NCBI GenBank assembly: GCA_963971305.1
Contig: OZ020307.1
Coordinates: 60,323,702-60,387,701, forward strand
Source: Arcuatula senhousia
Lineage: Eukaryota; Mollusca; Bivalvia; Mytilida; Mytilidae
Direction of reading: 5' to 3'
Length of the DNA stretch: 64,000 nt
Positions 4,292-63,209 of this stretch are shown piece by piece. The position numbers and the translations under genes were made by a program. Positions within the stretch are counted from its first letter, which is position 1. Each line of letters begins with the position of its first letter. A model generated the notes under the pieces. It saw only the letters and a list, made by a program, of their open reading frames with translations. It had not been told where the DNA came from and made no database searches.

Positions 4292-4300
4292 AAATTAACA

Positions 4301-4961: not shown

Positions 4962-5200
4962 GAAATTATCCGTCCGGCTACTTTTAAAAATTGTCATTTC
5001 CCGTAGGGTTGTTCTTACACCAGACATAGGTTGTTCTCAGTCATACTTTGTACCCAGTTCGGGTTTCATGTTCATATTGTTGTTAAGTATTCCATTTTAT
5101 TCAGAAAATGTCTCTAATACATGTAAGTCTTGAAATAAGAAAAAAACGCGCGTCAGGCGTAGCAAAATCTATTATCTGGAACTTTGTTGTAATTAAGATT
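4962..5200 (+). mobile_element. Diverged retrozyme copy with decayed hammerhead
   Basis: Blocks of this stretch match the 358-bp hammerhead retrozyme at 61374-61778 read in its sense direction: an ATCCGTC block, an AAAATTGTC block, a CCAGACATAGGTTG block, then the hammerhead 3' half ACGCGCGTCAGGCGTAGC, and finally the tail ending near TCTGGAACTTTGTTGT. The catalytic CTGATGA has been lost, so this ribozyme should be inactive. Confidence 0.65.
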
Positions 5201-5404
5201 TGATGATCACTCCTTTTTGAATTACCTTTCGGTGTCTTTTTAAAGCTTAAAGAACGACAAACTCAAAGAAGAATGTGTTGTTGCATCACTGTTAAGAGTA
5301 TCTCAATTTTTGTAGTACGACGCACGAAAATAATATTTTTAAAGACCCTTAATTTTTCGCAGCTGTCCATTTTGTCGTTTGTTTTGGCTTTCAAACCTTA
5401 AATT

Positions 5405-5500
5405 AACCTTTACTCTAAATATAAATTACAAGAAAGTTCCAGATAATAAATTTTGATATGCCTGATGGGCGTTTTGTCTATTCAAGATTCAATGTCAGAG
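5405..5500 (-). mobile_element. Diverged hammerhead repeat fragment, inverse orientation
   Basis: Read on the - strand, this stretch has CGCCTCTGA, a TCTTGAATAGAC stem II block, a mutated GAAA position and AGGCAT, then AAAATTTATTATCTGGAAC. It is the same family as 61374-61778. Stem I is partly retained, but the core carries several substitutions. Confidence 0.6.
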
Positions 5501-6480
5501 GCGGAATGATGCTACACAAAAAAGGAAAATTGACGACTGGAAAGTTGAAGGCATCACATTTGTCTGAGAGCTTTGTTGAACGTCTTTCTTGAGAGTCTAT
5601 TTCGAGATGTTGATCATTATATGTAGCAGATTTCCTAGAATCCGCTGTGTACTTTATCTCATGTTCCTGAGCATGTATGAGATGGAGAAAATTACCAAAT
5701 AGAAAAAGGACATCATCAATACAACGGAACGTGAGTTAAAAGAGAGCTAGTCTACGATCTCTTTTGAAGAGATTGTAAGAAGTCTGCTCCATATGAATGT
5801 AGAAACAAATCAGCAAGCAAATGTGCACAATAAGTGGCCATTGGAATCCCCAATGTTTGCAGAAAAAAACACGTCTACCAAATATTTGTACCTTCGTTTT
5901 CCATTCTTTTTAGAAAGCTGCGTTTCATCAGCTGTGCCAATCGTGCGAAAAAGGAGTGTAAAGAGTGGAGAAATCAAAAGAATCGATGCTGTTGCAAGAT
6001 GAAATTGATTTCGAGTAAAGAATCTCCAATAGATCTTTCGAAATCTTCAAGATCCACATTTGATCGAAATCATTTCTAGATTAACAATAATCATAATATT
6101 TATGGAGGCCAAATTATATTGGATTTTTGATGACCCTGCAACCTGCAATAATGCACTGTTTGTATGGCTTTTTATGTAATAAGGAATCCAATACAGGGAT
6201 GAAATGCCATCATTGTTCGCAACAACAGAGAGGTCAAAGGAGGAAATGACATATTTGTAATTGTCAATAATTTCCTCCTTAGACAGTGTTGTAGCTCTGC
6301 AATTGCTGGTACAACCAACTCCTAATTCATCTGTGAAGCAGTCAATATAGTGTTTCTGATCTTCCACACAAAAATGATATTGTATGGTATTTTGTCTGCA
6401 GGTACACCAATACATTTGTCATGTAAGACGGACAGTTTTCTGCAACATCAGCGCAGCCGCTGATGAAAATGGATTATGCT
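5480..6480 (-). pseudogene. Decayed Penelope-like reverse transcriptase, copy A
   Basis: The - strand encodes broken pieces of one reverse transcriptase in the correct N-to-C order. From 6415 to 6047 an open segment contains HYIDCFTDELGVGC, TLSKEEIIDNY and SSLYWIPY, the pre-palm region of this family. Around 5860-5790 a segment resembles the GIPMGTNCAP block. Near 5720-5690 an IDD catalytic box is visible, and near 5560-5500 the NFPFLCS block. Frameshifts and stops separate the pieces. I assign it to Penelope-like elements from RT motif style, with some doubt because no GIY-YIG domain is seen. Confidence 0.65.
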
Positions 6481-8965: not shown

Positions 8966-9205
8966 AATTACGGAATATTGATGCAGGAACACATTTTGCA
9001 GATGATGCTGTTTTTGCTTCAGTAAAACCGGAGCCAGAGATCTGAGGATATAGTTTCTTTAAAAGACTTTTTGCGTGCTTGGAAATGTTCAGGAGATTAC
9101 GGCTAGACTGACACCAAGACTTGACAAGATAAACGCATTGTTAGGACAAGCACTGGCAGTTGGTCTGAACGGAGCTATTACTTTTTGTCTCTGGTGAGTA
9201 CTGAA

Positions 9206-9262
9206 TATACTAAATGCGCATCATGCATAGTAGCAATATTTATTGCCTGGAACTTTGTTCTG
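9206..9262 (+). repeat. Remnant of the hammerhead retrozyme 3' half
   Basis: GCGCATCATGCATAGTAGC followed by ATATTTATTGCCTGGAACTT aligns to the segment after and around the cleavage site of the 61374-61778 family. It is highly diverged. Confidence 0.4.
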
Positions 9263-9705
9263 TTTTTTTTTATTTCTAACATCCGTGATGATAAACACTA
9301 CTGATGGAGTTTTACTTCCTCGAAGTTAGACCCCTCCGGTATTAACATTTATGTGTCGCCCATACTTTTGAAGAGAAATAACTTGTTATACCCCCTCCAC
9401 ATATACGAGATTTCTTTGACATGTCAAAAATCCTCGTAAAACTCACGAGTTCTTACGATTTCACACGAGCTAGAAAGTAGTAACAAGGAGTGCGATCGAA
9501 TACAAATTGAAAACTCGTAAGGAAATCTCGTAAATGTAAAGGGGGTATAACATGTAGTTTATTTCCTACCTTTACACGTAATGTGTTTTTGGAATACATA
9601 GATTTAATGATATTATAAAATTTGCTATTTATTTTCTTCAGTAAAAGTTTGATTCTAAACCCAGCCTCAAAGATACACATGTTCATTATAATGCTTAAAT
9701 AATAG

Positions 9706-9795
9706 GTTTCAGAGGATCACTTTAACTTACTGTTTGGTCCAGGCTGTAGCCCAACCAATGGATTTGATGCTATAGACATCGATGGAAGTGGAGCA
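9706..9795 (+). CDS. Phospholipase copy 1 exon (EF-hand first half)
   Basis: Thirty codons in phase 0, acceptor AATAATAG before GTTTCAGAG and donor GTAAGA. Key residues are FDAIDIDGSGA, the calcium-loop start. Confidence 0.88.
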
Positions 9796-12734: not shown

Positions 12735-13480
12735 TTGACATTTGTGTATCTCGAAAAGGATAACTGTGGATGGAATTATAGGCGTTATATGTAAACACCT
12801 GTTACATGAATATATTATATTTTTAAGATACGTATACTCAAAATATGTAAATACTTTTTCTAAGTTATGGAAATACTGAATTTAAGGAATACATGTACAC
12901 ATTGATCTCCACAAAACAAAGCTAAGAAGTATGAATTTAGTACCAGTATGTCTTTTTTAAAAAAAAAAGAAAAGATTACTTTAAAAACATATCACAAACA
13001 TTCCAGTCGGATGGTAAGATGTTCACGAAGGGACAATCTTTGTTTAACTCTGCTGTATATTCCACAAGTATACCCCCAAGTCTGAGAAAATACCCATTAA
13101 AATCGGGAGGTTAGATGTTCACACAAGGACAATCTTTTTAAAGAGGAATTTTCAACATATACGTATATCATTAAATGCATAAAAGAGGAGGGAAATGTGT
13201 CATTTTGTTTAGACTATGTATAAGACCAATGTGTTAGAATGTTACCTCATCCAGAATATAAGTAAGCGTCTGGTGGTTTATTTTTTGTGATTTGAATTAA
13301 TGGATTGTTGGTGCAATTTGCAATTGCAAATCATGGTTTTGTTGATTTGTGATGTTATTGGGGACATTACTTGCTATGTACTATAAATAAAATTAAAATC
13401 TATAGATAAAATATACAATTTTAAGGTACTGTTAGTCCGTTATGTTTATGTCTTGTGTGAATAAAAAATCTGTTATTTCT
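12735..13480 (+). promoter_or_regulatory. 3' untranslated region of phospholipase copy 1
   Basis: The region is conserved with 50529-51260. It holds AATAAA signals at 13386-13391 and 13460-13465. Two related imperfect stem-loops lie at 13016-13040 and 13112-13137 (AAGATGTTCAC ... GGACAATCTT), and both also occur in copy 2. Confidence 0.6.
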
Positions 13481-13535
13481 TGAGTTTTATTTCGGTTTTT
13501 TTTGTCAAATGCATCTTTTCAGATTGAAAGTTTTA

Positions 13536-14113
13536 AAGGCTTAAATGTCTACGAAAATCACATTTTTTTTCGTCCCCAATTTTTAATGTCCTTTAGACCA
13601 AAATGAAATAAAAAAAAACTTTGAATATTAATTTTTTTTCCAAATTTGTCTTAAACTTTGTTTATTTTGCGCGAAATTATTCGACCATGTTGATTGATTA
13701 TTTGTTTACAATCGAATTTAATACGGCCATCGATCGGGATCTCGGTTGTTTTGTTCCTGAAAACTTTAATTAAACAAATTCAATGTGAAGTATCTAAGGC
13801 CACGTTCACATTGAAGTTGTTTTGAGTAAACATGTGTAGAAGTAAACAAGTAAATCATCGTCATCAGAATATTTTTCATCTTTTCTATATGTATATAGAA
13901 AATCTTTGGCGAGTAGCAAAATTGGTAATTATTTCAAATTCACATCGAACCTGTATAAATTGTGCAAGTGAAATTGTGAAGCATATCCGGACGACAAAAA
14001 TCAATATCAACATTAGGCAAATTTTTCACGGGAATTTCCTGTAGAGCTCTCCGCTTCGTGCCCGCTACGAGCTGTGCTCGCTATGAATTTTGCTGATTAA
14101 TTTTGATACTTTA
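13536..14113. other. Gene-free AT-rich spacer
   Basis: No coding pattern or recognisable repeat is seen. The 70-residue frame over 13832-14044 has no domain. Confidence 0.3.
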
Positions 14114-17284: not shown

Positions 17285-17430
17285 GTGATGGATTTGGCTT
17301 CCTTGTTCGAACGTTTTGGTTCCTAGTACTTTTCGTTTTCAACAGTTTTGAAATTTGACCTTCCAATGTTTTGATTCAAATGCTACTGATGAGAGGTTAC
17401 TCCTTGAAATATCGATATATAGCATATCCA
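17285..17430 (+). repeat. Interspersed repeat shared with 59320-59455
   Basis: Both loci carry TCAAATGCTACTGATGAGAG-like text, GGTTAC, a CATATCCAAATT-like block and TGTTTATACCCG. The family is not identified. Confidence 0.45.
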
Positions 17431-44000: not shown

Positions 44001-47000
44001 AAATTTTTTTCAAAAATCTTCTGCTCTGAAACTACGGAACAGAATTCAATGAAACTTTGTATGATTGATTCTTAGGATGTCCTGCACTAAAGTTGTGTTT
44101 CAATTTTTGATTCGTCAAAAACCATGGCCGCCGTGGCTAGAAATAGACGATTGGGTCAGACAACTGTTTTTGGCTTGTAATTCAAAAAGTATAAGAGATA
44201 GATGAAATCTTATGCCCCTTGTTTCAGGATCAAAGTTCTACAAAAGTCTCCATTTGGTGGAAGTAGTCAGATGACCCCTTATAGGAATTACGTAGGCGAC
44301 ACAACCAACAAAAAAGAAACGGCAATTTAAAAAATCACAATGGAAAAAGCCAGCAGTCTTCAACATGACCTGAGGTCACTGCTCGCTGTCATTGTCCCAA
44401 GACTAAAAATACAATACATAAGATTAAAACAAATCCCTAGATTATCAACGAAACACCCATTTCTGGACATAAAGCAAAAAAAAAACAAAAAAAAAAACAG
44501 ATACTGTGGTTTCATTATTATTCGTGGGGTATCAATTTTTGTGGTTTTTGTTGGTGACTTTGACCCACGAAATTTGATACCCCACGAAAAGGAAATTTAA
44601 CATTGATTCCTATGCTGCAGATTTGAGAACCACGAATTTAACAATCCACGAACTGGTCCTTTTTCATAAAACCACGAAAATTAATACCCACGAAAATAAA
44701 TGAATCCCCAGTAGTTAACAAGGACAAACAAAGGTTCGATAAGGATTCCTGGCTTAATACATTCACATATAAAATGTGGCGGGTTTAAACTTGTTTTTTG
44801 GCCCAACTTTCCCCCTATTGTTTATCTTGTACAAAGCACAAAAAATAACACACTTTAAAAATCAAATCGATAAAAATTCAATTCACCGAAAGAGAACCTG
44901 AGACAAGAGTACTATACAAGAACAACGAAACGTACTGACAGCTAGCTAAGAAGCATTTATCAACTGATGTAAAAAATCAAACAAATCGATTATAAATCAA
45001 ACATAACACTTCAAACAACTAATGATTTAGTATTATATCATCACACAAAACCGACATATTTGATTGCTGTAATGCTCCGAAATAATACAAAGTCAAAAAG
45101 TAAAAGATTAACATTTTAGAGTTACTATCAAATTCTGATGAGTCTTGAATAGACGAAACGCACGTCAGGCGTAGCAAAATTTATTGTCTGGAACTTTGTT
45201 GTCATTTGTATTATCAATATTTCTACAAAAAACACCAAATTTAAAGATTGTACTAGAACTTCCAATTTGTATCCTTTCTTTAAAAAGTTTTTAAGCCAAA
45301 TTACCATGTCAAGAGGATTGTTTTTGAATTTACGTGCCTTATAAACTACATTTCCATAGAATTTGGGATCTTATATTCCTTTTACAATAAAAAAACAACG
45401 TGTACAGTTAAATTTTTCAATAAGATACCCATATTTATGAACGAATTCAGTAAAAAGAATTGACTAATTTGTGGTATCGATAACCTTGTTTTAGCATTTT
45501 TTTCTGTAATGAAGCGGTTTTTGTCATTAAAATCAGAAACACCAATGCAAATTCAAGTATATTTGACTAACTGTGAAATGTACACTCCCTAAGATGGAGC
45601 TAGAGGTACAATGTACACCACCTTCAAGAAAAGGAAAGTTTACAATTGGGAAAGAAAAGTCATCCCGTTTATCATAGACTTTAGTGTGCAATTTCCCATT
45701 GACAATGCTTAAATCTTAATCCAAAAATGGACATCTATCGCCGGTCGAGTTAGATTTATTAAGGGTTAACTTCTAAGGATAGATATCATTTATAAAGTAA
45801 GAGAAATTGGGGTTATTATAGTATGAAAACTAGAGCAGTTAGAAAAAAGCTGTTGCTTGATTAAATGTTCAGGTCATTTAGCCCTACAAAAGTCTCCATA
45901 GGGTCAAAGTTGTCAGATGACCCCTTATAGGGGTTGTGACCCCTAAAATAAGGCTTTCATGTTTTTGGCGAAGGGGCTGAAAACTGTAGCAGGTAGAGAG
46001 AGGCTGTTGCTTGCTTAAATGTTCAGCTCATTTAGCTCTATAAAAGTCTCCATTGGGTCCAAGTTGTCAGATGACCCCTTATAGGGGTGACGGTCCCTTA
46101 AATAAGTTTTTTTCATGATTTTGGCCTATAGAATGAAAGCTATAGCAGATAGAGAAAAGCTGTTGCTTGCTTAAATGTTCTGCTTATTTAGCTCTACAAA
46201 AGTCCACATAGGGTTGAAGTTGTCAGATGATTCCTTATAGGGGTAATGGCCCCTAAAATGAGTTTTTATTTTGTTTTGGGCCTGCAGAATGAAACTAAAG
46301 TAGATAGAGAAAAGCTGTTGCTTGCTTAAATGATCAGCTTATTTAGCTTTACAAAATTCTCAATAGGGTCAAAGTTGTCAGATGACCCCTTATAGGCGTT
46401 GCATTCCCTTAAATAAGGTTTTATTGTTTTTTGGCCTATAGAATAAAAACTATTACAGATAGAGAAAAGCTAATTCTTGCTTAAATGTTCAGCTCATTTA
46501 GCTCTACAAAAAAGTCTCCATAGGGTCAAAATATAAATGACAACAAAGTTTACCCATATGAGTGAAGTTGTCAGATGACACCTTACAAGGGTAACAGCCC
46601 CTCATATATGTTGTTTCATGCTTTTGACCTAAAGAATGAAAACTATTGCAGATAGACAAAATCTATTGTACCAAGTCAAGACCCTTGCGGTCTTCAATTT
46701 TTCCCGGTATGTCTTCCTTGTTATGTCTAGTCTTATGGACATTTGAGATTGATTCTCCACGTTTGGTAATTTTGTTATTACCTTTATTTGCTTATATTTA
46801 GCTCTACAAAAGTCTCCATAGGGTTGATGTTGTCAGATGACACTTTATAGGGGTTACAGCCCTTTAAATAAGGTTTTTTTCATGTTTGGCCTAAAGAATG
46901 AAAACTATTGCAGATAGAGGAAGCTGTTACTTGCTTAACCGTTGAGCTCATAAAGCTCTACAGAAGTCTTCATAGGCTAAAGATTGGCAGATGGTCCCTT

Positions 47001-50000
47001 AAAGGCGATTCAAAAGTCTTAGTAGGTTTGACATCAAGACCAGGTGAGCGATTCAGGCTCCCGGGAGCCTCTTGTTCAGTTACATATAAAATACCCCAGT
47101 TTTCACAACCATACAAAAAATAGGCTTTAAAATACAATGATCAAAAAAGTGAAGATAAAGTTTAACATTAGAGCTAGCAGATTTTAAATCACTATACATT
47201 TAAAAAAATGCCTTCATACTTCTCTGATAAAGTTGTTTTTCAGCTTTATTAAATTTCCCTGTGTTTTCAGTTATTAAACCAAGATATTTATACTCTTTAA
47301 CACATTCAATTAAGTTGTTTCTAATGTGGAAACTGTCTTTTATAACTTGTCCATTATTATTGAAAATTATGACTTATTACCTTTATTGTTTATCTCCTAC
47401 CTTTACACATAACGTGTCGTTGGAAAAGATAGATTTTATGATATTATAAGATTTGCTTTTAATGTTCTTCAGTAAAAGTTTGATTCCAAACCCAGCCTCA
47501 AAGATAAACATGTTTATTATAATGCTTAAATTATAGGTTTCAGATAATCACTTGAACTTACTGTTTGGCCCAGGATGTAGCCCAACTAATGGATTTGATG
47601 CCATAGACATCGATGGAAGTGGAGGGGTAAGATATTTTAAAATTTATATCAATAAACAATGGACTAGAAAAAATACTTGTTATCAGCAAAAAAACACACC
47701 ACTAATGCGCGTGAAATTAGATAACTGTTATTGTTTAATCGATAAATATGTCCTTGTTTAAGTTGTTTACGTTAATGACAAAAATGAAGAATGCAATTAT
47801 GAAGAAGAGGTCTCTGATTTGGTAAATACAACTTTCAGTATTTAGAAAATTGATAGGTAACAGGGTCGAACAATTGCAAATTATTATACTAGTATATGAA
47901 ATAAATTATGACCTGCTAAATTTATTAGAAGCTTGTTAAAGAAAATGATAAGATGTGGAATAAGTGTACGCGACACAGCTTACAAAACAAGCGACAATTA
48001 AGACAAACCAAATGGACAACCACCAGCAGCCTTCAACGAGGCCAGTAGGCACTGTTTGTCGTTCTGAAATTGTCCCATGGTCTAATTAAAATGCATACAA
48101 GTGAAATGAAGACCTATATTTCAGAGTTTGGCTTTAGTGCCGTGTGGAGGTCGTAGAAAGCTTCCCCGTGCTTCAGTTGTATGCTCTTATATATTTTCGA
48201 GTACTGGAATATGTGTTGGAAAGACACAGTTTATATATTTCCAAAATTTGACAACGTTTGGCTGTTTCTTTAAAAAATTGATAAATTTATCTGTTTGGTC
48301 ATTGTTGTAATATTTTTTGGCATTTTTTTTTTTTTTATCAAATTTAATAGTCTACCGGTTTTCCAAGTTTTCTACTAGCGTGTCTGATGAAGGTTAATCC
48401 AGAAAAGCGCTTCACACGCAATGAAATTTTGCTTTTGTAAATATATTAAAATCATGTCAATATGTGGATCGTGTCTTTTTGGCACATATTCCATATTCTT
48501 TCGTTTTAAATATTATTTCAGAGTTTGGCTTTAGTGCCGTGTGGAGGTCGTAGAAAGCTTCCCCGTGCTTCAGTTGTATGCTCTTATATATTTTCGAGTA
48601 CTGGAATATGTGTTGGAAAGACACAGTTTATATATTTCCAAAATTTGACAACGTTTGGCTGTTTCTTTAAAAAATTGATAAATTTATCTGTTTGGTCATT
48701 GTTGTAATATTTTTTGGCATTTTTTTTTATTTTTATCAAATTTAATAGTCTACCGGTTTTCCAAGTTTTCTACTAGCGTGTCTGATGAAGGTTAATCCAG
48801 AAAAGCGCTTCACACGCAATGAAATTTTGCTTTTGTAAATATATTAAAATCATGTCAATATGTGGATCGTGTCTTTTTGGCACATATTCCATATTCTTTC
48901 GTTTTAAATATTAACTATAATAGTCATATAGTCCTATTTCATTTTTACTTTTAGCTATCATACTCTGAAATTCTGAACTTCATTGAAGAACTAGGTGTTT
49001 CGGTACAAGAGAAATATATAGGAACTAAAAGGTCAGAAGTGACGAACTTTGGGAACTACTTGCACACAATATTCGGAGGTTTGAGTCAAAACATGGCAAG
49101 AATGTATATGGCGGTATGTATAACAGTCAAGCCTGTCTTATGGAGCACCTGTATATTGCGAATCACTGCCTATAAAGGGCATCTTAAAATATCCTTAATA
49201 TAAACATTACAACAAAAATGAACCTGTATATAAAGGGCATCTGCTTCTAAAGGGCATGATTTTGTCGTTCCATGGCTGCCCTTTATATACAGGTTTGCCT
49301 GTAATTTCGATCGCTTCTTTTGGTATCTTTAAAAAAGATTATAAGTAAGAATCTAACCGACAAGGCATCCTTATCGTCCCTATTTACAATGCATTTAGAT
49401 AATTCAAAACAAAGATGTTAAAAGGGGGAATTGAATGTCGTAAGTCCGGAAACGCCAAAACAATGTCGATAGACATTAAATAAACACCCCCTCCATCTAT
49501 AAAAACAGATTAAATCATAAAAAAACACACAAAACAAACCACAAAACAAACCGCAAAAACAGACTAAAGCATCAAAAACCCAGAAACAATATTACAATTA
49601 AGTGGCTATTAGAAACACTAACTAAATACGAAACAGAATTAAACTCGGTTGCTTTGAAAATTGTTGAATTCAAAAGGTTGTAAACAATAAAAAACACAAT
49701 CCAAAGCTACAACCCAGTAATATTTTCTATTACGAGGACCCAAAACATTTGGAATGAAATAAAGTAGTCATTTCAATTTGCCGAGAGCTAAATTTTATGC
49801 TTTGATAACTGTTACATGCCATTTTATATTTTAGCCCTCAGATGTCGATCGCACCATTGGTATCAACACCTGGTATATAACAACTCTTGATTTTGTGTTG
49901 GAAAAGGGAGATCGAGAATTTATTATTGATGTAGGTACAAGCGGACTACAGTGTTACACTTATACTTAAGTGTAAAAATGTTATGGAATTCTTACTTTTC

Positions 50001-50528
50001 TCATTTCAAAATATCGTTTTATAAAGTTATTAACAATTAAACTGAACTAGAAAGATACAAATAAAGATTGCAATGTTCCTGATTTGATACAGGTACTTCT
50101 TCAGAAACGGTGACTTAAAAATCATTTGTGGCGCTAGATCTCAGTTTAATTTATTGTGCTTTGGAATACGATTTATTGTGATTTCATTTATCCCAATGTA
50201 ACCGTAATCGGGTATTTTAAAGGTGGTTGTTGATTCTCTCGTCATTATTATTTGAAAAAAACACAAATCAGGTAACTCCAAAGGATGTTTTTGTTTGTTA
50301 CGATGATTTATATTAATTTATGTTAACTGGATAATAAATTTTACAAGTTTTACTATCCTATTTCTTTAATAGCAAGGTAAAAGGTCCACACAGGCCTTTC
50401 TCCAGAACCATGTGCTCAACAATAATCCGGAAAAGCTGTCACAAGCCGAGATCCAGTCCAGAGCTATACCAACAGGACCGAGTTTGTCTAAGGAGCAGAT
50501 CGAAAAAATTCTTGTGGTTGGCCGTTGA
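22807..50528 (+). CDS. Patatin-like phospholipase with C-terminal EF-hands, copy 2 (complete, 14 exons)
   Basis: Joining 14 exons gives 563 residues, every junction in phase with GT-AG ends. Residues 76-265 form a patatin domain: oxyanion-hole GGGVKG at 80-85, nucleophile Ser111 in GTSAG (109-113), the GLPGVFQAV block near 231-239 and catalytic Asp252 in DGG (252-254). Patatin enzymes use this Ser-Asp dyad to hydrolyse acyl chains of lipids. Residues 421-432, DIDGSGGLSYSE, match a canonical EF-hand loop, and residues 378-390 resemble a degenerate partner loop. The N-terminus MGKSYS resembles the myristoylated start of NCS-1. This suggests a membrane-associated, calcium-tuned lipase, by inference. 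ATG follows an acceptor-like TTTCAG directly, so a 5' non-coding exon is likely. The tandem paralog lies upstream at 9706-12734. Confidence 0.88.
23090..23340 (+). repeat. Intron 1 repeats: CCCGCGAATTTGCGGG palindrome and Penelope-like tail end
   Basis: CCCGCGAATTTGCGGG near 23109-23124 is a near-perfect palindrome of a kind common at ends of interspersed repeats. At 23265-23340 lies the second Penelope-like family's tail end, with GAGCCGTGTCGCGTACC and TATTCCACATCTTATTAG. Confidence 0.5.
23350..25150. other. Rest of intron 1, no recognised element
   Basis: AT-rich sequence. One short inverted repeat, ATTCCGGAACG with CGTTTCCGGAT, lies near 24270-24305. No coding sequence was found. Confidence 0.3.
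25153..25182. repeat. Three tandem TGATGACGTA units
   Basis: A 10-bp unit repeats three times, each carrying a TGACG core that bZIP factors bind. It lies in intron 1 of copy 2. Any regulatory role is inference. Confidence 0.5.
25601..25734 (+). CDS. Phospholipase copy 2 exon 2 (oxyanion hole)
   Basis: Acceptor TTTATTCTAG, donor GTTAGT. Codes residues 49-93 including NLVLEGGGVKGTCYIGLGR, the patatin glycine-rich oxyanion loop. The leading two bases complete the codon left by exon 1. Confidence 0.92.
26040..26400 (+). pseudogene. Penelope-like C-terminus and tail in intron 2
   Basis: The + strand reads SSLKKFYGRHRALIDKYG then ISISQMSADVG, followed directly by the tail (GGCAACACAACGGGTGTGC, later ATTGGTACCTCTGCTTC). 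It is in sense with the host gene. Confidence 0.7.
26649..26796 (+). CDS. Phospholipase copy 2 exon 3 (catalytic serine)
   Basis: Acceptor ACATTATAG, donor GTTAGT. Codes residues 94-142 plus one base, with ALEEHGIL and the nucleophile elbow FAGTSAGAIFAAMF (Ser111). Confidence 0.93.
27134..27296. repeat. Long hairpin (foldback) repeat in intron 3
   Basis: Arms of about 60-65 bp pair: AGGGCAAGATAAGGAAATCT with CCGACACCC on the left, inverse on the right, loop around 27197-27224. A perfect TGACGTCA palindrome lies upstream at 27058-27065. Confidence 0.8.
27555..27691 (+). CDS. Phospholipase copy 2 exon 4
   Basis: Acceptor TTTTTTCTTCAAG, donor GTATTT. Codes residues 143-188, including GTKAMDFIGAFIEAKTGNP and ending LTFAQ. 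This is a helical part of the patatin domain. Confidence 0.9.
27850..28145 (+). repeat. Penelope-like 3' tail in intron 4
   Basis: A well-preserved tail: TTGACACACTGATTTGG, GGCAGCGCGACGGGTATGC, GAGTTCACTCTCATTACG, and the end CCATTGGTACCTCTGCTTCC. Confidence 0.7.
28417..28552 (+). CDS. Phospholipase copy 2 exon 5
   Basis: Acceptor TATTTTAG, donor GTAGGT. Codes residues 189-233, including VELCIVGVNVNTKSEEYF and PIRLAVRISMGLP. The final block continues into exon 6 as the conserved GLPGVF motif. Confidence 0.92.
28600..29150 (-). repeat. Tail of the second Penelope-like family, intron 5
   Basis: Reading the + strand: GATGTGGAATAGGTGTACGC, ACAACGGACAACCGCC, TTCTGCAATTGGCCCATGG, GATTCCTGGCTTAGGACAG and GTGGCGGGGTTAAAC. 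The same blocks occur in reverse at 42550-42890, where they follow the reverse transcriptase end. Confidence 0.6.
29366..29461 (+). CDS. Phospholipase copy 2 exon 6 (catalytic aspartate)
   Basis: Acceptor TATTTTCAG, donor GTATGT. Codes residues 234-265, including GVFQAVSYKKF and VDGGLMCNYPV, which carries catalytic Asp252. Confidence 0.93.
29991..30315. repeat. Near-perfect ~95-bp inverted repeat, intron 6
   Basis: Arm 29991-30085 and arm 30222-30315 are complementary with very few mismatches and enclose a ~136-bp spacer. The arms begin TGAAGGTGTTTTTGGAAAA. This could be a foldback MITE; no target duplication is evident. Confidence 0.85.
30567..30574. promoter_or_regulatory. Perfect TGACGTCA palindrome
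   Basis: The CRE-type palindrome lies about 155 bp before the 30730-30866 hairpin. The same pairing (CRE, then hairpin) occurs at 27058 and 27134. Confidence 0.4.
30730..30866. repeat. Long hairpin repeat, intron 6
   Basis: The left arm begins AGATCATAACATG and runs through TTTTCATATCAGACC; the right arm is its inverse, ending CATGTTATAATCT. Arms are about 60 bp. The left flank TATGATAAAAAG also precedes the hairpin at 62891. Confidence 0.8.
30874..31690. repeat. Array of GATAAACTGAGTTTATC-type palindromes, intron 6
   Basis: Two ~400-bp units (about 30874-31280 and 31324-31680) share AAACTGAGTTTATCGCCCG, TAGTTATCGGTCGATAAAC and many degenerate palindromes of the pattern GATAAAC-TGA-GTTTATC. 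Each unit adjoins CACAGTCACAAAAACCCC-like text, as at 30190-30210. Confidence 0.75.
31730..31900. repeat. Short degenerate T-rich tandem repeat
   Basis: TTTCTGTACTCCTCTTTAAG and variants repeat about five times. It resembles the larger minisatellite at 32948-33475. Confidence 0.55.
32017..32290 (+). pseudogene. Penelope-like reverse transcriptase fragment, intron 6
   Basis: The frame at 32027-32236 reads LSALLTSILTTIKSGLQNYY and GVNKMWILEILREP, matching the pre-palm segment of the family seen at 6047-6415. A frameshift precedes the DLSTL-like block. Confidence 0.7.
32300..32940. other. Intron 6 interval with TTACCATAGCAACGG motif
   Basis: AT-rich with no coding sequence. TTACCATAGCAACGG at about 32849 is the only notable motif, of a kind seen in invertebrate repeats. 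Confidence 0.3.
32948..33475. repeat. 70-bp minisatellite immediately before exon 7
   Basis: About seven units of 70 bp contain TATGTCATTTCTATGCTTCT, CTTTAAGTTTTCCTGTGTAC and TTCTCTTTAAGTTATTTCTG. Because 70 is not divisible by three and the unit lacks stops, all three + frames are open; these ORFs are not genes. The array is strongly pyrimidine-rich and ends 70 bases before the exon 7 acceptor. Confidence 0.9.
33546..33682 (+). CDS. Phospholipase copy 2 exon 7
   Basis: Acceptor TCTTTTAG, donor GTAAGT (perfect consensus). Codes residues 266-311, beginning with the GWWLSMEP block and ending KTLGCIV. It follows a 70-bp pyrimidine-rich minisatellite. Confidence 0.88.
34095..34186 (+). CDS. Phospholipase copy 2 exon 8
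   Basis: Acceptor TTTTTTCTTAG, donor GTGAGT. Codes residues 312-341 plus two bases: FDQSEEEYMRRALQKKSG and KLPDTALA. Confidence 0.88.
34480..34560 (+). repeat. Second Penelope-like family tail end, intron 8
   Basis: TTGTGGTTTTTCTAAATTGC, GGGCTGTGTCGCGTACACTT and ATTCCACATCTC match the reverse-orientation copies at 47951 and 52661. Confidence 0.6.
34590..35115 (+). repeat. SINE-like element with ACTCACTC-type tail, intron 8
   Basis: It carries GTCGTCAGAGGCGACTAAC, TGAATGGTGTCGCC, TACAGGGCCTTGACCGCTC and the end GCAAGGGCGTAAAACACC followed by CTCTCTCGCTCACTCC. The tail recurs inverted at 40915-41075. This looks like a mollusc SINE; I could not confirm a pol III promoter. The tail lies about 30 bases before the exon 9 acceptor. 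Confidence 0.5.
34945..35018. repeat. (ATC)n microsatellite
   Basis: About 24 units of CAT with one early CAC variant; it produces a poly-serine ORF that is not a gene. Confidence 0.95.
35144..35228 (+). CDS. Phospholipase copy 2 exon 9
   Basis: Acceptor TCTGATTTAAG, donor GTCAGT. Codes residues 342-370, including NWMDTEGGKGTLDKVYAL and the helix entering the degenerate EF-hand (DSFMK). Confidence 0.85.
35598..35678 (+). CDS. Phospholipase copy 2 exon 10 (degenerate EF-hand)
   Basis: Acceptor TTATTTCAG, donor GTACAG. Codes residues 371-397. DGGNGGNTISRVEF looks like an EF-hand loop with one extra residue, flanked by helices LLSESIE and NTVFSK. Confidence 0.86.
35690..37900. other. Start of intron 10, no recognised element
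   Basis: No coding sequence. It holds a ten-base G run near 37650, a perfect TGACGTCA at 37360-37367 and AT-rich DNA. Confidence 0.3.
37900..39180 (+). pseudogene. Second Penelope-like family: N-terminal and pre-palm part
   Basis: The frame at 38020-38439 and its continuation (KKGPKFRP-like block near 38440) match the start of this reverse transcriptase family. After several stops, 38886-39179 encodes MYWISKLHKNPYKSHF, SALTAIKEF-like text and VDSYDFSSLYTNSPVD, the first catalytic-aspartate block. The remaining palm region is missing; the C-terminal part resumes at 41740. It lies in intron 10, sense to the host gene. Confidence 0.65.
39200..39480. repeat. Repeat with paired ATGGCGGCCATTTTC / AGATGGCCGCC motifs
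   Basis: AATGGCGGCCATTTTCAAG and AGATGGCCGCC occur at 39281-39307, with a diverged second set at 39442-39470. Such YY1-like ATGGC palindromes recur in invertebrate repeats. Confidence 0.5.
39481..40900. other. Intron 10 interval without recognised element
   Basis: AT-rich; the - strand frame at 40252-40455 is lysine-rich and without a domain. No inverted terminal repeats were noticed. Confidence 0.3.
40915..41075 (-). repeat. SINE-like tail, inverted copy
   Basis: GAGTGAGTGAGTGAGTGAGC, GGTGTTTTACGCCCGTGC and a TGATGATGAT stretch are the reverse of the element end at 34930-35115. Confidence 0.6.
41063..41715 (-). pseudogene. LINE fragment: endonuclease-RT linker and RT start
   Basis: The - strand reads KPWIYLQ and SWNRTTELLRQEVKRTKKYDK near 41700-41500, and then DNIIKAMITMKTGKTSGP at 41250-41190. 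These match the linker and the K-x-GK-x-x-G block that open non-LTR reverse transcriptases. Stops lie between the parts and the catalytic domain is absent. Confidence 0.6.
41740..42256 (+). pseudogene. Second Penelope-like family: C-terminal part
   Basis: CAPLIADLFLYSF is fused after a deletion to PLVPSYGVYISQFVRYA and DKNRFITKK. A frameshift follows, and the frame continues through FTKFYHKYQYLIEKFNCT to a terminus near LLTLKC-stop at about 42253. The YxDD box is deleted. Confidence 0.65.
42257..42900 (+). repeat. 3' tail of the second Penelope-like family
   Basis: It directly follows the reverse transcriptase end and includes ACTAGTTTAACCCCGCCAC, CCTTAGCCAGGAATC, and finally TTGTGTAAACTTATTCCAC. 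This links the widely scattered GTCGCGTACACTTATTCCAC repeat to that family. Confidence 0.55.
42901..43940. other. Intron 10 interval without recognised element
   Basis: No coding sequence or clear repeat was noticed. Confidence 0.3.
44283..44430 (-). repeat. Second Penelope-like tail fragment
   Basis: GTAGGCGACACAACC, ACGGCAATTTAAAAAATC and CAGCAGTCTTCAACATGACC match the 52661-52850 copy. Confidence 0.5.
44500..44710. repeat. Inverted repeat with GTGGGGTATCA arms and CCACGAA motifs
   Basis: CGTGGGGTATCAATTTTTGTGG near 44524-44545 is mirrored by AATTTGATACCCCACGAA at 44570-44587. CACGAA motifs then repeat (44634, 44647, 44675, 44689). Confidence 0.55.
44745..45860 (-). pseudogene. Second Penelope-like family: C-terminus and tail, interrupted by a hammerhead repeat
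   Basis: From 45790 downward the - strand gives NFPFLEGG-like text, QKPLHYRKK, EFVHKYGYLIEKFNCT, then FYGNVVYKARKF and KNFLKKGYKLEVLVQSL. The hammerhead repeat at 45129-45215 lies in the reading-frame end. The tail runs to about 44745 (GTGGCGGGTTTAAAC, GATTCCTGGCTTAA). Stops and frameshifts are frequent. Confidence 0.6.
45129..45215 (+). ncRNA. Hammerhead ribozyme repeat, 5'-truncated copy
   Basis: The catalytic core is intact: CTGATGA at 45135-45141, stem II GTCT/AGAC at 45142-45154, GAA at 45155-45157, stem III AC/GT with loop GCAC, and C at 45166 before AGGCGT. The 5' half of stem I is replaced by unrelated AAATT, so only about two base pairs of stem I remain. The 3' tail runs to about 45215 as in 61374-61420. 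Confidence 0.7.
45848..46980. repeat. 155-bp tandem array, about seven units
   Basis: Units start near 45848, 46003, 46158, 46313 and 46468 and carry AGCTGTTGCTTGCTTAAATG, AGCTCTACAAAAGTCTCCAT and TTGTCAGATGACCCCTTATA. Later units are interrupted near 46530 and 46665-46800. The spacing is regular at 155 bp. Confidence 0.85.
46665..46800 (-). repeat. Fragment of the 58548-59050 repeat inserted in the array
   Basis: Its inverse reads AAAGGTAATAACAAAATTACC, AATCAATCTCAAATGTCC and the end GACTTGGTAC, as at 58800-58910. Confidence 0.6.
47537..47626 (+). CDS. Phospholipase copy 2 exon 11 (EF-hand start)
   Basis: Acceptor TTATAG, donor GTAAGA, phase 0 at both ends. Codes residues 398-427, ending FDAIDIDGSGG. 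An 11.9-kb intron precedes it. Confidence 0.9.
47951..48110 (-). repeat. Second Penelope-like tail fragment in intron 11
   Basis: AGATGTGGAATAAGTGTACG, CGACACAGC, ATGGACAACCACCAGCAGC and GAAATTGTCCCATGGTC. It abuts the hammerhead dimer. Confidence 0.6.
48378..48419 (+). ncRNA. Hammerhead ribozyme motif, dimer unit 1
   Basis: Stem I GCGTGT (48378-48383) pairs perfectly with ACACGC (48414-48419). CTGATGA follows at 48384-48390. Stem II is short, GG/CC flanked by an A-A mismatch. GAA is at 48402-48404, stem III AA/TT has loop GCGC, and C17 is at 48413. Cleavage is predicted after 48413. The weak stem II lowers certainty of activity. Confidence 0.6.
48776..48817 (+). ncRNA. Hammerhead ribozyme motif, dimer unit 2
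   Basis: Identical to the motif at 48378-48419, offset by 398 bases. Confidence 0.6.
48955..49113 (+). CDS. Phospholipase copy 2 exon 12 (EF-hand end)
   Basis: Acceptor CTTTTAG, donor GTATGT. Codes residues 428-480, beginning LSYSEILNFIEELGV, and pairs in phase with exon 11. Confidence 0.92.
49124..49301. mobile_element. 178-bp MITE with TAA target duplication in intron 12
   Basis: It begins CAGTCAAGCCTGT and ends with the inverse ACAGGTTTGCCTG, flanked by TAA at 49121-49123 and 49302-49304. It is absent from the same intron of copy 1. An internal 19-bp perfect inverted repeat has arms AACCTGTATATAAAGGGCA. A TAA duplication fits the PIF/Harbinger type. Confidence 0.75.
49835..49930 (+). CDS. 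Phospholipase copy 2 exon 13
   Basis: Acceptor TATTTTAG, donor GTAGGT. Codes residues 481-512, including INTWYITTLDFVLEKGDRE. Identical in protein to copy 1. Confidence 0.92.
50373..50528 (+). CDS. Phospholipase copy 2 exon 14 (terminal)
   Basis: Acceptor TTTCTTTAATAG, stop TGA at 50526-50528. Codes residues 513-563, ending EKILVVGR. Confidence 0.92.
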   Translation, partial: QGKRSTQAFLQNHVLNNNPEKLSQAEIQSRAIPTGPSLSKEQIEKILVVGR

Positions 50529-51262
50529 TTGTCATTTGTGAATCTCGAAAGGGATAACTGTTGATGGAATTATAGGCGTTATATGTAAACACCTATTACA
50601 TGAATATATTATATTTTAAAAATAAGTTTACACGAAATATGTCAAGACTTGTTCTATGTTATGGAAATTCTGAATTAAAGGAATACACATTGATCTCCAC
50701 AAAACCTGGCTATGTTGTATGAATCTAGTACCAGAATGTCTTTTTTAAAAAGGAAAACTTAAGATTACTTTGAAACATATCACCAAGTCTAAGAAAACTT
50801 TCCAGTAAGATGTTCACACTCGGACAATCTTTGCTTTTCTCTGCTATATACTCCACAAATATACCACCAAGTCTAAGAAAAAAACATTAGAATCGGATGG
50901 TAAGATGTTCACACAAGGACAGTCTTTTAAAGAGGAATTGTCAAGGAGTCAGTAGGTCTTGCACTATAATAACATATAATTAAATGTATAAGAGAGAGGG
51001 AAAAGTGTCATTTGTTTAGATTATGGATAAGACGTTACCTCATGTAGAATATAACAATGGGTGCTTACATTTTTCTTTTCGATTTGAATTAATGCAGTGT
51101 TGGTGCAAATGTAAATCATGGTTTTGTTAATTTGTGATGTTGTTGGGAACATTACTTGTTTCGTTTTAAAAACTAATAAATAATGAGATAATTGTATTTT
51201 CATAAAATAAACAATTTTAATGATTAGTCCGTTATGTTTTTTTTCTTGTGTTAATAATAAAT
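50529..51262 (+). promoter_or_regulatory. 3' untranslated region of phospholipase copy 2
   Basis: AATAAA signals lie at 51175-51180 and 51256-51261. Two AAGATGTTCAC...GGACA(A/G)TCTT stem-loops (about 50807-50832 and 50902-50927) are conserved with copy 1. Confidence 0.6.
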
Positions 51263-51437
51263 CTGTTTTTAATGGGTTTATTTCGTTATTTTGTTTTTTG
51301 GTCGAATCAATCTACCTATTTAGATGGAAAGTTTTAAATCAGAACAGTAGAATTTTGTATTAATGATTGCAAATGCATGAATTGAAAAATCATTTACTGA
51401 AAAGCGTCTTCGTATCACAGTTGAATCGTTACTCTAG

Positions 51438-52660: not shown

Positions 52661-52850
52661 ATGTGGAATAAGCGTACACGACACAGCCCACAATTAAACG
52701 GCAATTTAGAAAAACCACAATGGACAACCGCCAGCAGCCTTCAACGAGGCCATTTGGCACTGCTCGCGGTTCTGCAATTGGCCCTTGGTCTAAATAGGAT
52801 GCATATAATTCAAATCCAGCCCTGAAATAGTCACAGATAGACCCCTACTC
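52661..52850 (-). repeat. Second Penelope-like tail fragment
   Basis: GATGTGGAATAAGCGTACAC, ACAATGGACAACCGCC, CTTCAACGAGGCCATTTGG, and CCAGCCCTGAAATAGTCAC. Confidence 0.6.
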
Positions 52851-53099
52851 TGATAACTACGATTAGAGACGATGGAGACAGATTCAGTATTTATCAGTAT
52901 TGAAAATAAAAAATAGAATATTACACAGCACAACCGAATTGTGTTTAAATTAATATCAAAGTCTAACTTAGTAGTAAAATCATTACAAATTTCGGTTTTA
53001 AAATGCAAAAATTCATACGATTTTAGATGTCAAATATATTATATTTTGAAATACCTATTTAGAATCTTGTCAGAAAGTTTTTTTGAAAACATTTTTTGT

Positions 53100-60640: not shown

Positions 60641-61120
60641 GGAGCTTGCGGTATTAATGTGTAAGCTGCTGTTCATGGTTTTTTTAGTTAGCTTTATTTT
60701 AAGTTTAGCGTTATATCTGAAAACACTAAGCAAAGCAATTAACATGTTAATTTACTTAAACAAACCCACACATATTGATACAGCAAGAGAAATAAGGAAA
60801 GGCAATAAGCAAAGTTGATTAATTGCATATTAGAAAACTTCCTAGATACATTGTATGCACAATGAGAAACATAAGTTTTATACATATTTTTTTGCAAATA
60901 AGCACTCAACCAATCAAACAGAAAATTTCCATGCTTAAACACCTTTAAAGCAAACTTTGAACATTAGGACTTTATTCGTTATTTAATAAAATATTGATCT
61001 CTAATAAGCATACCTTTTAAAAAGTAACGGTTTATTATTTATGAAAAGTCAAACACACCATAGGTAAAATAAAATCGAACGGACCAAATGAAAACGCCTT
61101 TTAATAGCAGAGGTTTGTTT
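60641..61120. other. Interval without recognised element
   Basis: No coding sequence with a domain; AT-rich. Confidence 0.3.
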
Positions 61121-61373
61121 AATTAAGAGGCTGTCCATGTAGAAAACAGGCAAAAGCCTACAGAAGCTGGCACATGAAGAATTTTATCCCAGCAAATTTA
61201 TTGTTTTAATATATTGTTGGACTCATATGTAAAACAAAAATCACCCGGATTCGTTTTAAAGCAAAATGAATGACTTGTGATTCAGCCTTAAAGTTCATGG
61301 ACAAAGCAACCAAATTTTGCAATTATGCAAGAGTTATCTCCCTTTTTCTGCATATTTTCAATGCATTCTATAT

Positions 61374-61778
61374 AAATACAAATGACAACAAAGTTCCAGA
61401 CAATAAATTTTGCTACGCCTGACGCGCGTTTCGTCTATTCAAGACTCATCAGAGGCGCTCTACCAAAAATATTGAAATTGCCAAACACTGTATGAATATG
61501 AAGAGCATAGAACAGTATAACCAAAAATACCAAACTGGGGAACCAAATTATTAGTAAGATATCCAACCTATGTCTGGGGTAGGAAGAACCTTAGGGTTTA
61601 GACAATTTTGAAATTTAGACGGATAATTTAAAGCTTTGATGTATTCTCCAACTCAAAAGTGTTGGTGCCGGAGCGGGCTAACCTCGGGGAATTTAAACTC
61701 CACCAGCAGTGCTAACCTTCACGTGTGTTCGAAATACAAATGACAACAAAGTTCCAGACAATAAATTTTGCTACGCCT
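61374..61778 (-). mobile_element. Hammerhead retrozyme: 358-bp unit with 47-bp direct terminal repeats
   Basis: 61374-61420 and 61732-61778 are identical over 47 bp and lie exactly 358 bp apart. Read on the - strand, the element begins AGGCGTAGC at 61778, runs through one full unit with a complete hammerhead at 61458-61415, and ends with a second partial copy of the same start. Its first base is the base that follows the predicted ribozyme cleavage site. It has no coding capacity and would be mobilised in trans, probably by a Penelope-like reverse transcriptase. It is nested in a TTAA-flanked MITE. Confidence 0.85.
61415..61458 (-). ncRNA. Type-I hammerhead ribozyme, complete 44-nt motif
   Basis: In - strand sense: stem I GCGCCU (61458-61453) pairs with AGGCGU (61420-61415), the outermost pair being a G-U wobble. 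CUGAUGA is at 61452-61446. Stem II GUCU/AGAC has loop UGAAU (61445-61433). GAA is at 61432-61430. Stem III is AC/GU around GCGC (61429-61422), and C17 is at 61421. Every invariant core base is present and cleavage is predicted between 61421 and 61420. The self-complementary ACGCGCGU favours a dimeric ribozyme. Confidence 0.88.
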
Positions 61779-61933
61779 AAATTATATCTAAGTTATCACT
61801 TCAATAAACAAAAAATCTACATTTGTTTTGGGGAATGGATGTTACCCCGATGTGAAATCAATGAAAATTTTTGAAAAAACAAAATTTGTCATGTGCCAGC
61901 TATTGCCTGGGTTTTGCTTGGACAGCCTCTTAA

Positions 61934-62880
61934 CAAACCATATAAATAATACAAGGACTAAATAAGCTCTAACTTGTACAATTATATATTTTATGTCTCG
62001 AAAAGGCAACTTAGAATGTAATGTTTATTGACCTTGACACGATTAATGTTAAAAACAGATCCGGACCGGTGTAAGCTTAAAGTTCCGTTAAATAATTTAT
62101 TGAGAAAAAATATGTTATTTTCCATTTTTTATTAATATATAACGACTTTAAAAATATGAGGTTGTATGTATTCGATCAACCATTTCATATGCAAAGTTGT
62201 TGTGACAATAAATTTTACATATTAAAAGACGATTTTTTTTTTAAAGTGAAAATGTGTGTAAATTTTTAATAAAACTGGGCCATATTTATTTAGGTCTTAT
62301 AGGTATTAAACTTGTTGTAAATCTATCAAGAAAATGACGTGATTTTTTCTATACTTTTGTACATTTGATAAATCTGTTATAATTACATATAAACAAAGAG
62401 GTAGCCGTAAAATTCACTGTCAAAAATTTGACCCTCTTGTATACAAAGATGCATGGTTTAAAACAAATAATTTTGCACAAATTTCAGCATCTTTTAAATA
62501 AGTACAACAAATGAATTTTGAAAGATTTGATATTACACTTTGAGAAAATGCAATTAAATTTCGGTCTACAAGGGTATCACACAAACTTTTAAATAAGACG
62601 TCTTTTCCGACTTGGCTGATAGACTAATTATATGTGATTGTTTTCCTGTGTGTAACAGCCGTAAATTTACAAGCCATACATTTACAAGGGACCTTTTTGC
62701 CTTATCAAGCCCGCGCGTGCACAAAAGTAGGAAAATATGGCCATATCAACACCTCGCGTGCACAAAAGTGGGCTAATATGCCATATCAAGGTCTAGAGTC
62801 TCACTTTGAAATTTGATATTACAGTATATTTATATCGTCTGCTATTTATTTTTATGTAAATTATGAAAATGTATGATAAA
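61934..62880. other. Interval with a short GTGCACAAAAGT direct repeat
   Basis: CGCGTGCACAAAAGTAGG (62712) and CGCGTGCACAAAAGTGGG (62754), each followed by an AATATGGC-CATATCAA-like block, form a short tandem duplication. The rest is AT-rich with no gene. Confidence 0.4.
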
Positions 62881-62890
62881 AAGAATATGA

Positions 62891-62980
62891 CACAGGGTTT
62901 TCAATATCAGGTCACATATCATTCCTCGACCCATATTAGGTCTCGGAATGATATGAGTCTTGATATGGAAAACCCTGTGT
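62891..62980. repeat. Long hairpin (foldback) repeat
   Basis: Arms of about 40 bp: CACAGGGTTTTCAATATCA with CATATCATTCC on the left and the inverse on the right. Flanks TATGATAAAAAG on the left and AATAATCTGTATAT on the right resemble those of the hairpin at 30730-30866. Confidence 0.8.
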
Positions 62981-63209
62981 AATAATCTGTATATATTTAA
63001 TGAGATATGTCGACGCCTTGTACCTTTGTATTAATTGGGAAAACTATATTGTCCATATATATCAAATTGTCTTGTTTTTTTGAGAGCAGAAAGTTTTTTA
63101 AGGTCAACAGTCATACATATATATTGACATAAGATAGAATTTACACGATGAGGGAACTCTATGTAGATGACTTAAGCTTGGTTAGTAATATTTTGACTTT
63201 GATTTTAAG

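What the first reader, a model, noticed from the sequence alone, without database searches (positions are those of the whole stretch)
61374..61778. Complete hammerhead ribozyme in a 358-bp retrozyme with exact terminal repeats
All core bases and all three stems of a type-I hammerhead are present on the - strand (61458-61415). The motif sits in a non-coding unit bounded by identical 47-bp direct repeats. Two-bp stem III with a GCGC loop is the form known from Penelope-like elements and small metazoan retrozymes, which act as dimers and give circular RNAs. The exact sequence may not be described.
Basis: partly seen in the sequence, partly recalled or inferred. Interest (0 to 1): 0.85.

Follow-up and report, generated by a model that had tools for sequence, protein, structure and literature searches.

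The report
Hammerhead-ribozyme retroelement in a bivalve
A shellfish-like genome piece carries a small jumping element with a self-cutting RNA, a kind already known from mussels; its ends, and those of damaged relatives nearby, hint at how such elements are copied into new places.

Summary
Minus strand 61458-61415 is a complete type I hammerhead (Rfam RF00163, 36.5 bits, cut-off 34), and identical 47-bp repeats lie 358 bp apart. The window looks bivalve. Hammerhead repeats of 350-390 bp that give circular RNA are published for Mytilus galloprovincialis (PMC7229834), so this is a new copy of a known kind.

The repeats are not LTR-like. The insert is a 1.13-mer: its 5' end is exactly the predicted cleavage site; it runs one 358-nt unit, then 47 nt more.

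Six copies or fragments lie in the window. Four of six share a 3' end within 2 nt, 47 nt past the cleavage site; a fifth, decayed, fits it; one reads through. 5' ends mostly differ. Two inserts have sister repeats without the insert. This suggests target-primed copying from a fixed point, like the Penelope 'tail' (PMC11167929). Penelope partners were already proposed in print; no sequence clue was known (PMC7761336).

A second candidate, not reported by Rfam, is a 397/398-bp dimer (48119-48913) with two identical hammerhead-like motifs and a 5-bp flanking repeat.

Cleavage, circular RNA and genome-wide copies were not tested.

The parts
61374..61778 (-). Retrozyme insertion c61: RNA-sense 5' end at 61778 (exactly the predicted cleavage site), one 358-nt unit (61778-61421), then 47 nt of the next unit (61420-61374)
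   Evidence: 47-bp exact direct repeat at 358 spacing; positions 1-405 of the doubled unit
61415..61458 (-). Type I hammerhead ribozyme; predicted cleavage between 61421 (C17) and 61420
   Evidence: RF00163 36.5 bits, E 1.6e-5 for the window; core and stems intact
61374..61420 (-). 47-nt 'tail' downstream of the cleavage site; its end is the 3' end shared by most copies
61779..61782 (.). AAAT (ATTT in RNA sense), possible 4-bp target duplication with AAAT 61374-61377; could equally be priming microhomology, since the unit itself has AAAT at 61732-61735
   Evidence: read from the sequence
61116..61940 (.). Inferred terminal-inverted-repeat (MITE-like) element around c61: arms 61116-61185 and 61881-61940; no second copy in the window
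   Evidence: inverted repeats I1 (79%) and I3 (90%); no other copy
45135..45212 (+). Copy c45: 78-bp insertion with intact hammerhead core and stems II and III plus tail, lacking the 5' strand of stem I
   Evidence: absent from the paralogous repeat 41829-42656; RF00163 22.7 bits, below the cut-off; unit positions 326-404
5416..5503 (-). Copy c5416: decayed hammerhead plus tail; BLAST match ends within 1 nt of unit position 405
   Evidence: the local alignment runs on with gaps at both ends (271-424)
4963..5201 (+). Copy c5194: unit positions about 150 to the tail end, core decayed; the local alignment stops at unit position 398, an ungapped match of the last 22 nt (4 mismatches) ends at 405
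9189..9356 (+). Copy c9: unit positions 325-486, reads THROUGH the shared 3' end; core decayed; the exception to the 3'-end rule
46531..46566 (-). c465: 36-bp insertion in one unit of a tandem array; 46529-46550 matches the last 22 nt of the tail (21 of 22), the other 16 nt of the insertion do not match the unit
   Evidence: sister units without it
48119..48913 (+). Second retrozyme candidate: tandem dimer (397 + 398 bp, 99.75% identical) with one hammerhead-like motif per unit
   Evidence: self-comparison, sequence
48378..48419 (+). Hammerhead-like motif of unit 1 (6-bp stem I, intact core, A.A mismatch at the base of stem II, AAGCGCUU stem III); predicted cleavage 48413|48414
   Evidence: descriptor scan; NOT an Rfam hit up to E = 10
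48776..48817 (+). Identical hammerhead-like motif of unit 2
48114..48118 (.). CTATA, inferred 5-bp target duplication of the dimer (other copy 48915-48919)
   Evidence: joined flanks align to paralogues within 52721-52870 and 28726-28880 that lack the dimer and read CTGAA at this place

Best explanation
61374-61778 is a genomic copy of a non-autonomous, non-LTR metazoan retrozyme, probably in a bivalve. Its RNA (minus strand) carries a type I hammerhead that should cut between 61421 and 61420. Tandem transcripts would be cut to 358-nt units and ligated into circles (inferred from the published mussel family, not tested here). A reverse transcriptase supplied in trans, most likely from a Penelope-like element, starts at a fixed point 47 nt downstream of the cleavage site, primed at a nicked AT-rich target whose end may pair with AUUU, and copies towards the 5' end. 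In most copies it stopped early. In c61 it made one full turn and ran off at the hammerhead-cut 5' end, which leaves a 1.13-mer whose two ends share 47 bp. Shown: motif, family copies, shared 3' end, sister repeats without the insert for c45 and c465, and the 5' end of c61 at the predicted cleavage site. Inferred: self-cleavage, circularisation, the circular or tandem template, and the enzyme.
For: Rfam hit over the whole model; 47-bp repeat ending exactly at the predicted cleavage site. Six copies or fragments in 64 kb: 3' ends at unit position 405 (c61), 404 (c45), 405 or 406 (c5416), 405 (c465; 408 in the alignment), 398-405 (c5194, decayed); c9 reads through to 486. If ends were uniform on the unit, 4 of 6 within 3 nt has probability 1.65e-5. 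5' ends: 1, about 150, about 322, 326, 325, and about 384. Insert absent from a paralogue for c45 and from four sister units for c465. ATT or TTT at the c61, c45 and c465 junctions fits the AT-rich, ATT-containing cuts and the internal start reported for a Penelope-like element whose genomic 'tail' ends at the start sites (PMC11167929, parts 1-2 of 4 read). Mussel retrozymes of 350-390 bp with circular RNA (PMC7229834). Bivalve origin: of the 120 hits listed (of 747), 13 carry an organism name and all 13 are bivalves.
Against: The isolated hammerhead's MFE fold is not the hammerhead; the unit is no more stable than shuffles. Of five copies that cover the hammerhead only c61 and c45 keep the core, and c45 lacks the 5' strand of stem I, so one complete ribozyme of this family is in the window. 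Covariation is thin: two both-side changes, both in the decayed copy c9, one of them explicable by CpG decay. c9 breaks the 3'-end rule. c465 rests on 22 nt. A fixed 3' end could also be the end of a linear RNA. PMC7229834 says target duplications, when present, exceed 4 bp; c61 has at most 4, c45 and c465 at most 3. In the Penelope study the start was NOT homologous to the cut DNA, whereas here the junctions show 3-4 nt of possible microhomology, and the hammerhead was not needed for insertion in vitro. No partner element with this tail was found in the window.
Confidence: 0.8

Rival explanations
1. It is an LTR-type retrozyme with true 47-bp terminal repeats, as in plants.
For: Identical direct repeats bound the unit.
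Against: The RNA-sense 5' repeat holds only the 3' strand of stem I and no hammerhead. The repeat boundary is the predicted cleavage site. Relatives c45 and c5416 end at the same 3' point with no second repeat.
Confidence: 0.05
2. The retrozyme is inserted by LINE-type machinery that recognises the 3' tail of a linear RNA, not by a Penelope-like enzyme.
For: Fixed 3' end with differing 5' truncation is also the classic LINE/SINE pattern (general knowledge). A repeat pair at 9557-13537 and 47388-51338 with RT-like C-terminal frames (weak zf-RVT, E 0.064, below the cut-off) may be a LINE.
Against: A circular RNA has no 3' end, so an internal start is needed if the circle is the template. Near that repeat pair the tail scan gave only background-level matches (6 of 22 mismatches), though the pair's true 3' end is not established. 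Target duplications are short (0-4 nt).
Confidence: 0.3
3. The 47-bp repeat is a partial tandem duplication made at DNA level (satellite-like), with the hammerhead a relic.
For: Hammerhead repeats in animals often form tandem arrays (PMC7229834).
Against: Dispersed copies with one 3' end and a paralogue lacking the insert point to insertion; the repeat ends exactly at the predicted cleavage site.
Confidence: 0.05
4. The hammerhead match is a chance resemblance.
For: It is only 2.5 bits above the Rfam cut-off, and MFE folding does not show it.
Against: E = 1.6e-5 for the window over all families; none of 100 shuffles matches the core pattern; an almost identical core recurs at 45135.
Confidence: 0.01

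Closest known systems
Non-LTR retrozymes of Mytilus galloprovincialis (Cervera and de la Pena 2020, PMC7229834)
   Same: Type I hammerhead, non-coding repeat unit of 350-390 bp (here 358), bivalve, low G+C (here 39.7%), no LTR features; published as giving circular RNA
   Different: Sequence identity to the published clones could not be checked; here a 1.13-mer, not a full dimer; circular RNA not shown
Penelope-like elements with hammerheads and a 3' 'tail' (Frangieh et al. 2024, PMC11167929)
   Same: Genomic copies extend past the hammerhead to a fixed reverse-transcription start; AT-rich, ATT-containing targets
   Different: No ORF here; in the lizard element the start lies 111-118 nt into an ORF (about 85-92 nt past the cut, by subtraction), and it was not homologous to the target
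Plant LTR retrozymes (type III hammerhead; as described in PMC7229834 and its review PMC7761336)
   Same: Hammerhead-bounded non-coding unit, direct repeats
   Different: Type I not type III; repeats are 47 bp and do not each contain a ribozyme; unit about half the published size
Axolotl retrozymes, HHR_Amex2 (PMC7229834)
   Same: For the 48119-48913 dimer: unit near 350-400 bp and a mismatch at the base of stem II
   Different: A.A instead of U.U mismatch; bivalve; activity unknown

Membership tests
Hammerhead ribozyme, type I (RF00163) | Conserved core plus stems I-III with stem I open-ended | tested here: met
   36.5 bits, gathering score 34, full model; core CTGATGA/GAAA/C17. MFE fold differs
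Hammerhead ribozyme, type I (RF00163) | Self-cleavage | not testable with these tools
   needs an in vitro transcript
Metazoan non-LTR retrozyme | Non-coding unit of about 170-400 nt with type I hammerhead, multicopy, low G+C | tested here: met
   358-nt unit, 39.7% G+C, longest stop-free stretch of the insertion 51 codons; six related copies or fragments in 64 kb
Metazoan non-LTR retrozyme | More than one unit in tandem | tested here: inconclusive
   1.13 units in c61; a full dimer only in the second candidate family at 48119-48913
Metazoan non-LTR retrozyme | Target duplications longer than 4 bp, when present | tested here: inconclusive
   at most 4 bp for c61, at most 3 for c45; 5 bp for the 48119-48913 dimer
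Metazoan non-LTR retrozyme | Circular RNA | not testable with these tools
   no RNA reads available
Plant LTR retrozyme | LTRs that each carry a type III hammerhead | tested here: not met
   type I motif; one complete hammerhead, not one per repeat
Plant LTR retrozyme | Primer binding site and polypurine tract | not tested
   no search made
Penelope-like element | Open frame for a reverse transcriptase | tested here: not met
   405 bp with no stop-free stretch over 51 codons
Penelope-type insertion | Fixed internal start ('tail') downstream of the hammerhead | tested here: inconclusive
   fixed 3' end in 4 of 6, one decayed copy compatible, one exception; that the start is internal to the RNA assumes a tandem or circular template

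The most novel reading that the evidence does not exclude
Animal retrozymes are mobilised by Penelope-like reverse transcriptases (a partner already proposed in print) that start internally on the circular RNA at a fixed tail site a set distance downstream of the hammerhead. The shared 3' end, together with the cleavage-site 5' end of c61, would be the first genomic footprint of it: a circle copied from the tail and re-opened by its own hammerhead. That would identify the missing partner of a widespread animal element and explain how an RNA without a 3' end can jump.
Probability: 0.35. Interest if true: 0.7.

Novelty: new member of a known kind. Interest (0 to 1): 0.42.

Why it matters
Mussel retrozymes are known to give abundant circular RNA. 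Two papers name Penelope-like elements as likely partners (PMC7229834, Discussion; PMC7761336, passages), but the second states that the repeats show no conserved motif from which the partner could be deduced. A fixed 3' end 47 nt past the cleavage site, differing 5' ends, and one insertion whose 5' end is the cleavage site are such a clue. It can be tested in any bivalve genome by mapping insertion ends and looking for an autonomous element with the same tail.

Tried and rejected
Genome-wide copies: the genome search on the window's own genome was asked 16 times with the same request and never answered. Pattern scans for the hammerhead or its tail found nothing in prokaryote genome contigs or viral contigs (for the dimer's motif). 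A looser hammerhead pattern found 11 viral-contig stretches; none shows this stem III and tail; I read them as unrelated phage-type hammerheads and did not study them further.

Literature: one search for five sequence strings gave 0 papers. Searches for retrozyme + mussel + Penelope (2 papers, both cited above), retrozyme + Penelope + tail (5 papers) and hammerhead + non-autonomous + Penelope + target-primed reverse transcription (1 paper) were made; of the last two I saw only the listings, and no title or abstract start there stated a shared tail. The library lacks most subscription papers.

Partner element: the tail was scanned over the window; beyond the copies reported, only matches with 5-6 of 22 mismatches appeared, which I take as background.

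Third hammerhead-like motif at 17386 (+): passes the descriptor, but its paralogues do not keep the core; left open. The descriptor was written after I had seen the 48384 motif in the list and was made loose enough for its stem II mismatch, so its random-sequence control (mean 0.04) is not fully independent.

Covariation and MFE folding give no support for either hammerhead beyond the sequence match.

Full report
What is there. On the minus strand, 61458-61415 scores 36.5 bits against the Rfam type I hammerhead model (gathering score 34) and covers all 45 model positions. It is the only gathering-level RNA family in the window. The core pattern has two matches in the window and none in 100 shuffles. 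The 47-bp direct repeats at 61374-61420 and 61732-61778 are identical and 358 bp apart.

How the piece is built. The predicted cut lies between 61421 and 61420, and the repeat ends exactly there. Read in RNA sense, the insertion begins at 61778 with the base that follows the cut, runs through one 358-nt unit ending in GUC, and continues 47 nt into the next unit. It is a 1.13-mer of a circular or tandem unit. The RNA-sense first 47-bp copy holds only the 3' strand of stem I, so there is one ribozyme, not two, and the repeats are not LTRs. The piece seems to lie inside a terminal-inverted-repeat element (arms 61116-61185 and 61881-61940); no second copy of that element is in the window. AAAT stands at 61374-61377 and 61779-61782: a 4-bp target duplication or priming microhomology.

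The family. Comparing the unit with the whole window finds five more related pieces. c45 (45135-45212) is a 78-bp insertion, shown by a paralogous repeat at 41829-42656 that lacks it; it keeps the core and stems II and III but has no 5' strand of stem I. c5416 and c5194 are decayed copies. c465 is a 36-bp insertion (46531-46566) into one unit of a tandem array whose four other matching units lack it; 22 nt there match the end of the tail with one mismatch, and 16 nt match nothing in the unit. c9 spans unit positions 325-486.

Ends. On the unit numbered from the cut, 3' ends are 405 (c61), 404 (c45), 405-406 (c5416 by BLAST; the looser alignment runs on with gaps), 405 (c465 by BLAST; 408), 398 by local alignment or 405 by ungapped match with 4 mismatches (c5194), and 486 (c9). 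Four of six within 3 nt has probability 1.65e-5 if ends are uniform on the unit; five of six within 5 nt, which needs the ungapped reading of c5194, 2e-6 (a figure from few simulated cases). The model ignores detection bias. 5' ends are 1, about 150, about 322 (c5416), 326 (c45), 325 (c9) and about 384 (c465). Three of six thus cluster at 322-326, at or inside stem I; I have no explanation.

Ribozyme state. Of the five copies that cover the hammerhead, c61 and c45 keep CUGAUGA/GAAA/C; c5416, c9 and c5194 are mutated in the core. Two both-side changes occur (stem II pair 3 and stem III pair 2), both in c9; the second can be CpG decay. This is not evidence of conserved pairing. The isolated 44 nt do not fold into the hammerhead as minimum-free-energy structure, and 91 of 100 shuffles fold as well as the unit. 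The published paper likewise makes an exception for some mussel circRNAs when it says that most animal circles leave the hammerhead free to fold (PMC7229834, Discussion).

Origin of the window. A DIRS-like element (319-4294; three frames with Phage_integrase, RVT_1 and HeH matches, all slightly below Pfam's curated cut-offs) has 747 homologues at E below 1e-30 among 7996 scored candidates; of the 120 listed, 13 carry an organism name and all 13 are bivalves (Mytilus, Pecten, Ylistrum, Argopecten). The closest named one is M. galloprovincialis at 62%, so the species is not fixed.

What it is. Mussel retrozymes are published: about 5000 type I hammerheads in M. galloprovincialis, usually in repeats of 350-390 bp, one cloned repeat cleaving at about 0.1 per min, with abundant circular RNA (PMC7229834). 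The 358-bp unit of 39.7% G+C fits. That paper shows dimer action for the axolotl; 'acts as a dimer' does not follow for a mussel-type repeat.

How it moves. Both PMC7229834 and the review PMC7761336 (passages) propose Penelope-like elements as partners; the review adds that the repeats show no conserved motif that would reveal the partner. Here the 3' end is fixed. A purified Penelope-like enzyme starts reverse transcription internally, downstream of its hammerhead, at sites that coincide with the 'tail' of genomic copies, and cuts AT-rich DNA with an ATT motif (PMC11167929, parts 1-2 of 4). The junctions of c61, c45 and c465 carry ATT or TTT. Against a simple match: the published start was not homologous to the target, lies further from the cut, and did not need the hammerhead in vitro; and a fixed 3' end alone would also fit a LINE acting on a linear RNA (rival, 0.3). 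The 5' end of c61 at the cut fits a template opened by the ribozyme.

A second element. A dimer of 397 + 398 bp, 99.75% identical (48119-48913; 31.7% G+C), sits in a dispersed repeat whose paralogues lack it (within 52721-52870 and 28726-28880), with CTATA on both sides; the paralogues read CTGAA there. Each unit holds GCGUGU CUGAUGA AGGUUAAUCCA GAA AAGCGCUU C ACACGC, identical in both: full 6-bp stem I and core, but an A.A mismatch at the base of stem II. Rfam does not report it up to E = 10, and its MFE fold keeps stem I but not the hammerhead core. A descriptor of my own, written after I had seen this motif, finds it twice, c61, and one more site at 17386: four hits against a mean of 0.04 in 100 first-order Markov sequences. 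A U.U mismatch at that place is known to be tolerated (PMC3088659, passage); I saw no documented A.A case. Dimer form, flanking repeat and unit size make a second retrozyme family likely; activity is open.

Verdict. Real, intact and well explained: a new copy of a known kind. Its added value is the family evidence for a fixed 3' start and the second candidate family, both from one 64-kb window and in need of the genome.

Noticed in passing
48119-48913: 397/398-bp tandem dimer with two identical hammerhead-like motifs, CTATA on both sides and paralogous repeats lacking the insert; not reported by Rfam.
   Followed up: partly
17386 (+), motif about 17378-17427: Third motif passing a hammerhead descriptor (6-bp stem I, palindromic stem III, A at position 17); paralogues at 59355 and 55947 do not keep the core.
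   Followed up: partly
45135, 5503, 9189: Three of six copies begin at nearly the same place, at or inside the 5' strand of stem I (unit 322-326); unexplained.
   Followed up: partly
46531-46566: 36-bp insertion in a tandem array: the retrozyme tail end preceded (RNA sense) by 16 nt of other sequence; may be the 3' end of another family that shares the tail.
   Followed up: partly
319-4294 (-): DIRS-like retroelement with three overlapping open frames (HeH/LEM-like, reverse transcriptase, integrase-like); Pfam scores slightly below the curated cut-offs.
   Followed up: partly
37909-39179 (+): Broken frames that look like a Penelope-like element's N-terminal and early RT part (motifs recalled, not confirmed by Pfam).
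   Followed up: partly
7592-7717, 7732-7822, 62876-62994: Hairpin-forming stretches that score weakly, far below cut-offs, against miRNA families on both strands; perhaps MITEs.
   Followed up: no
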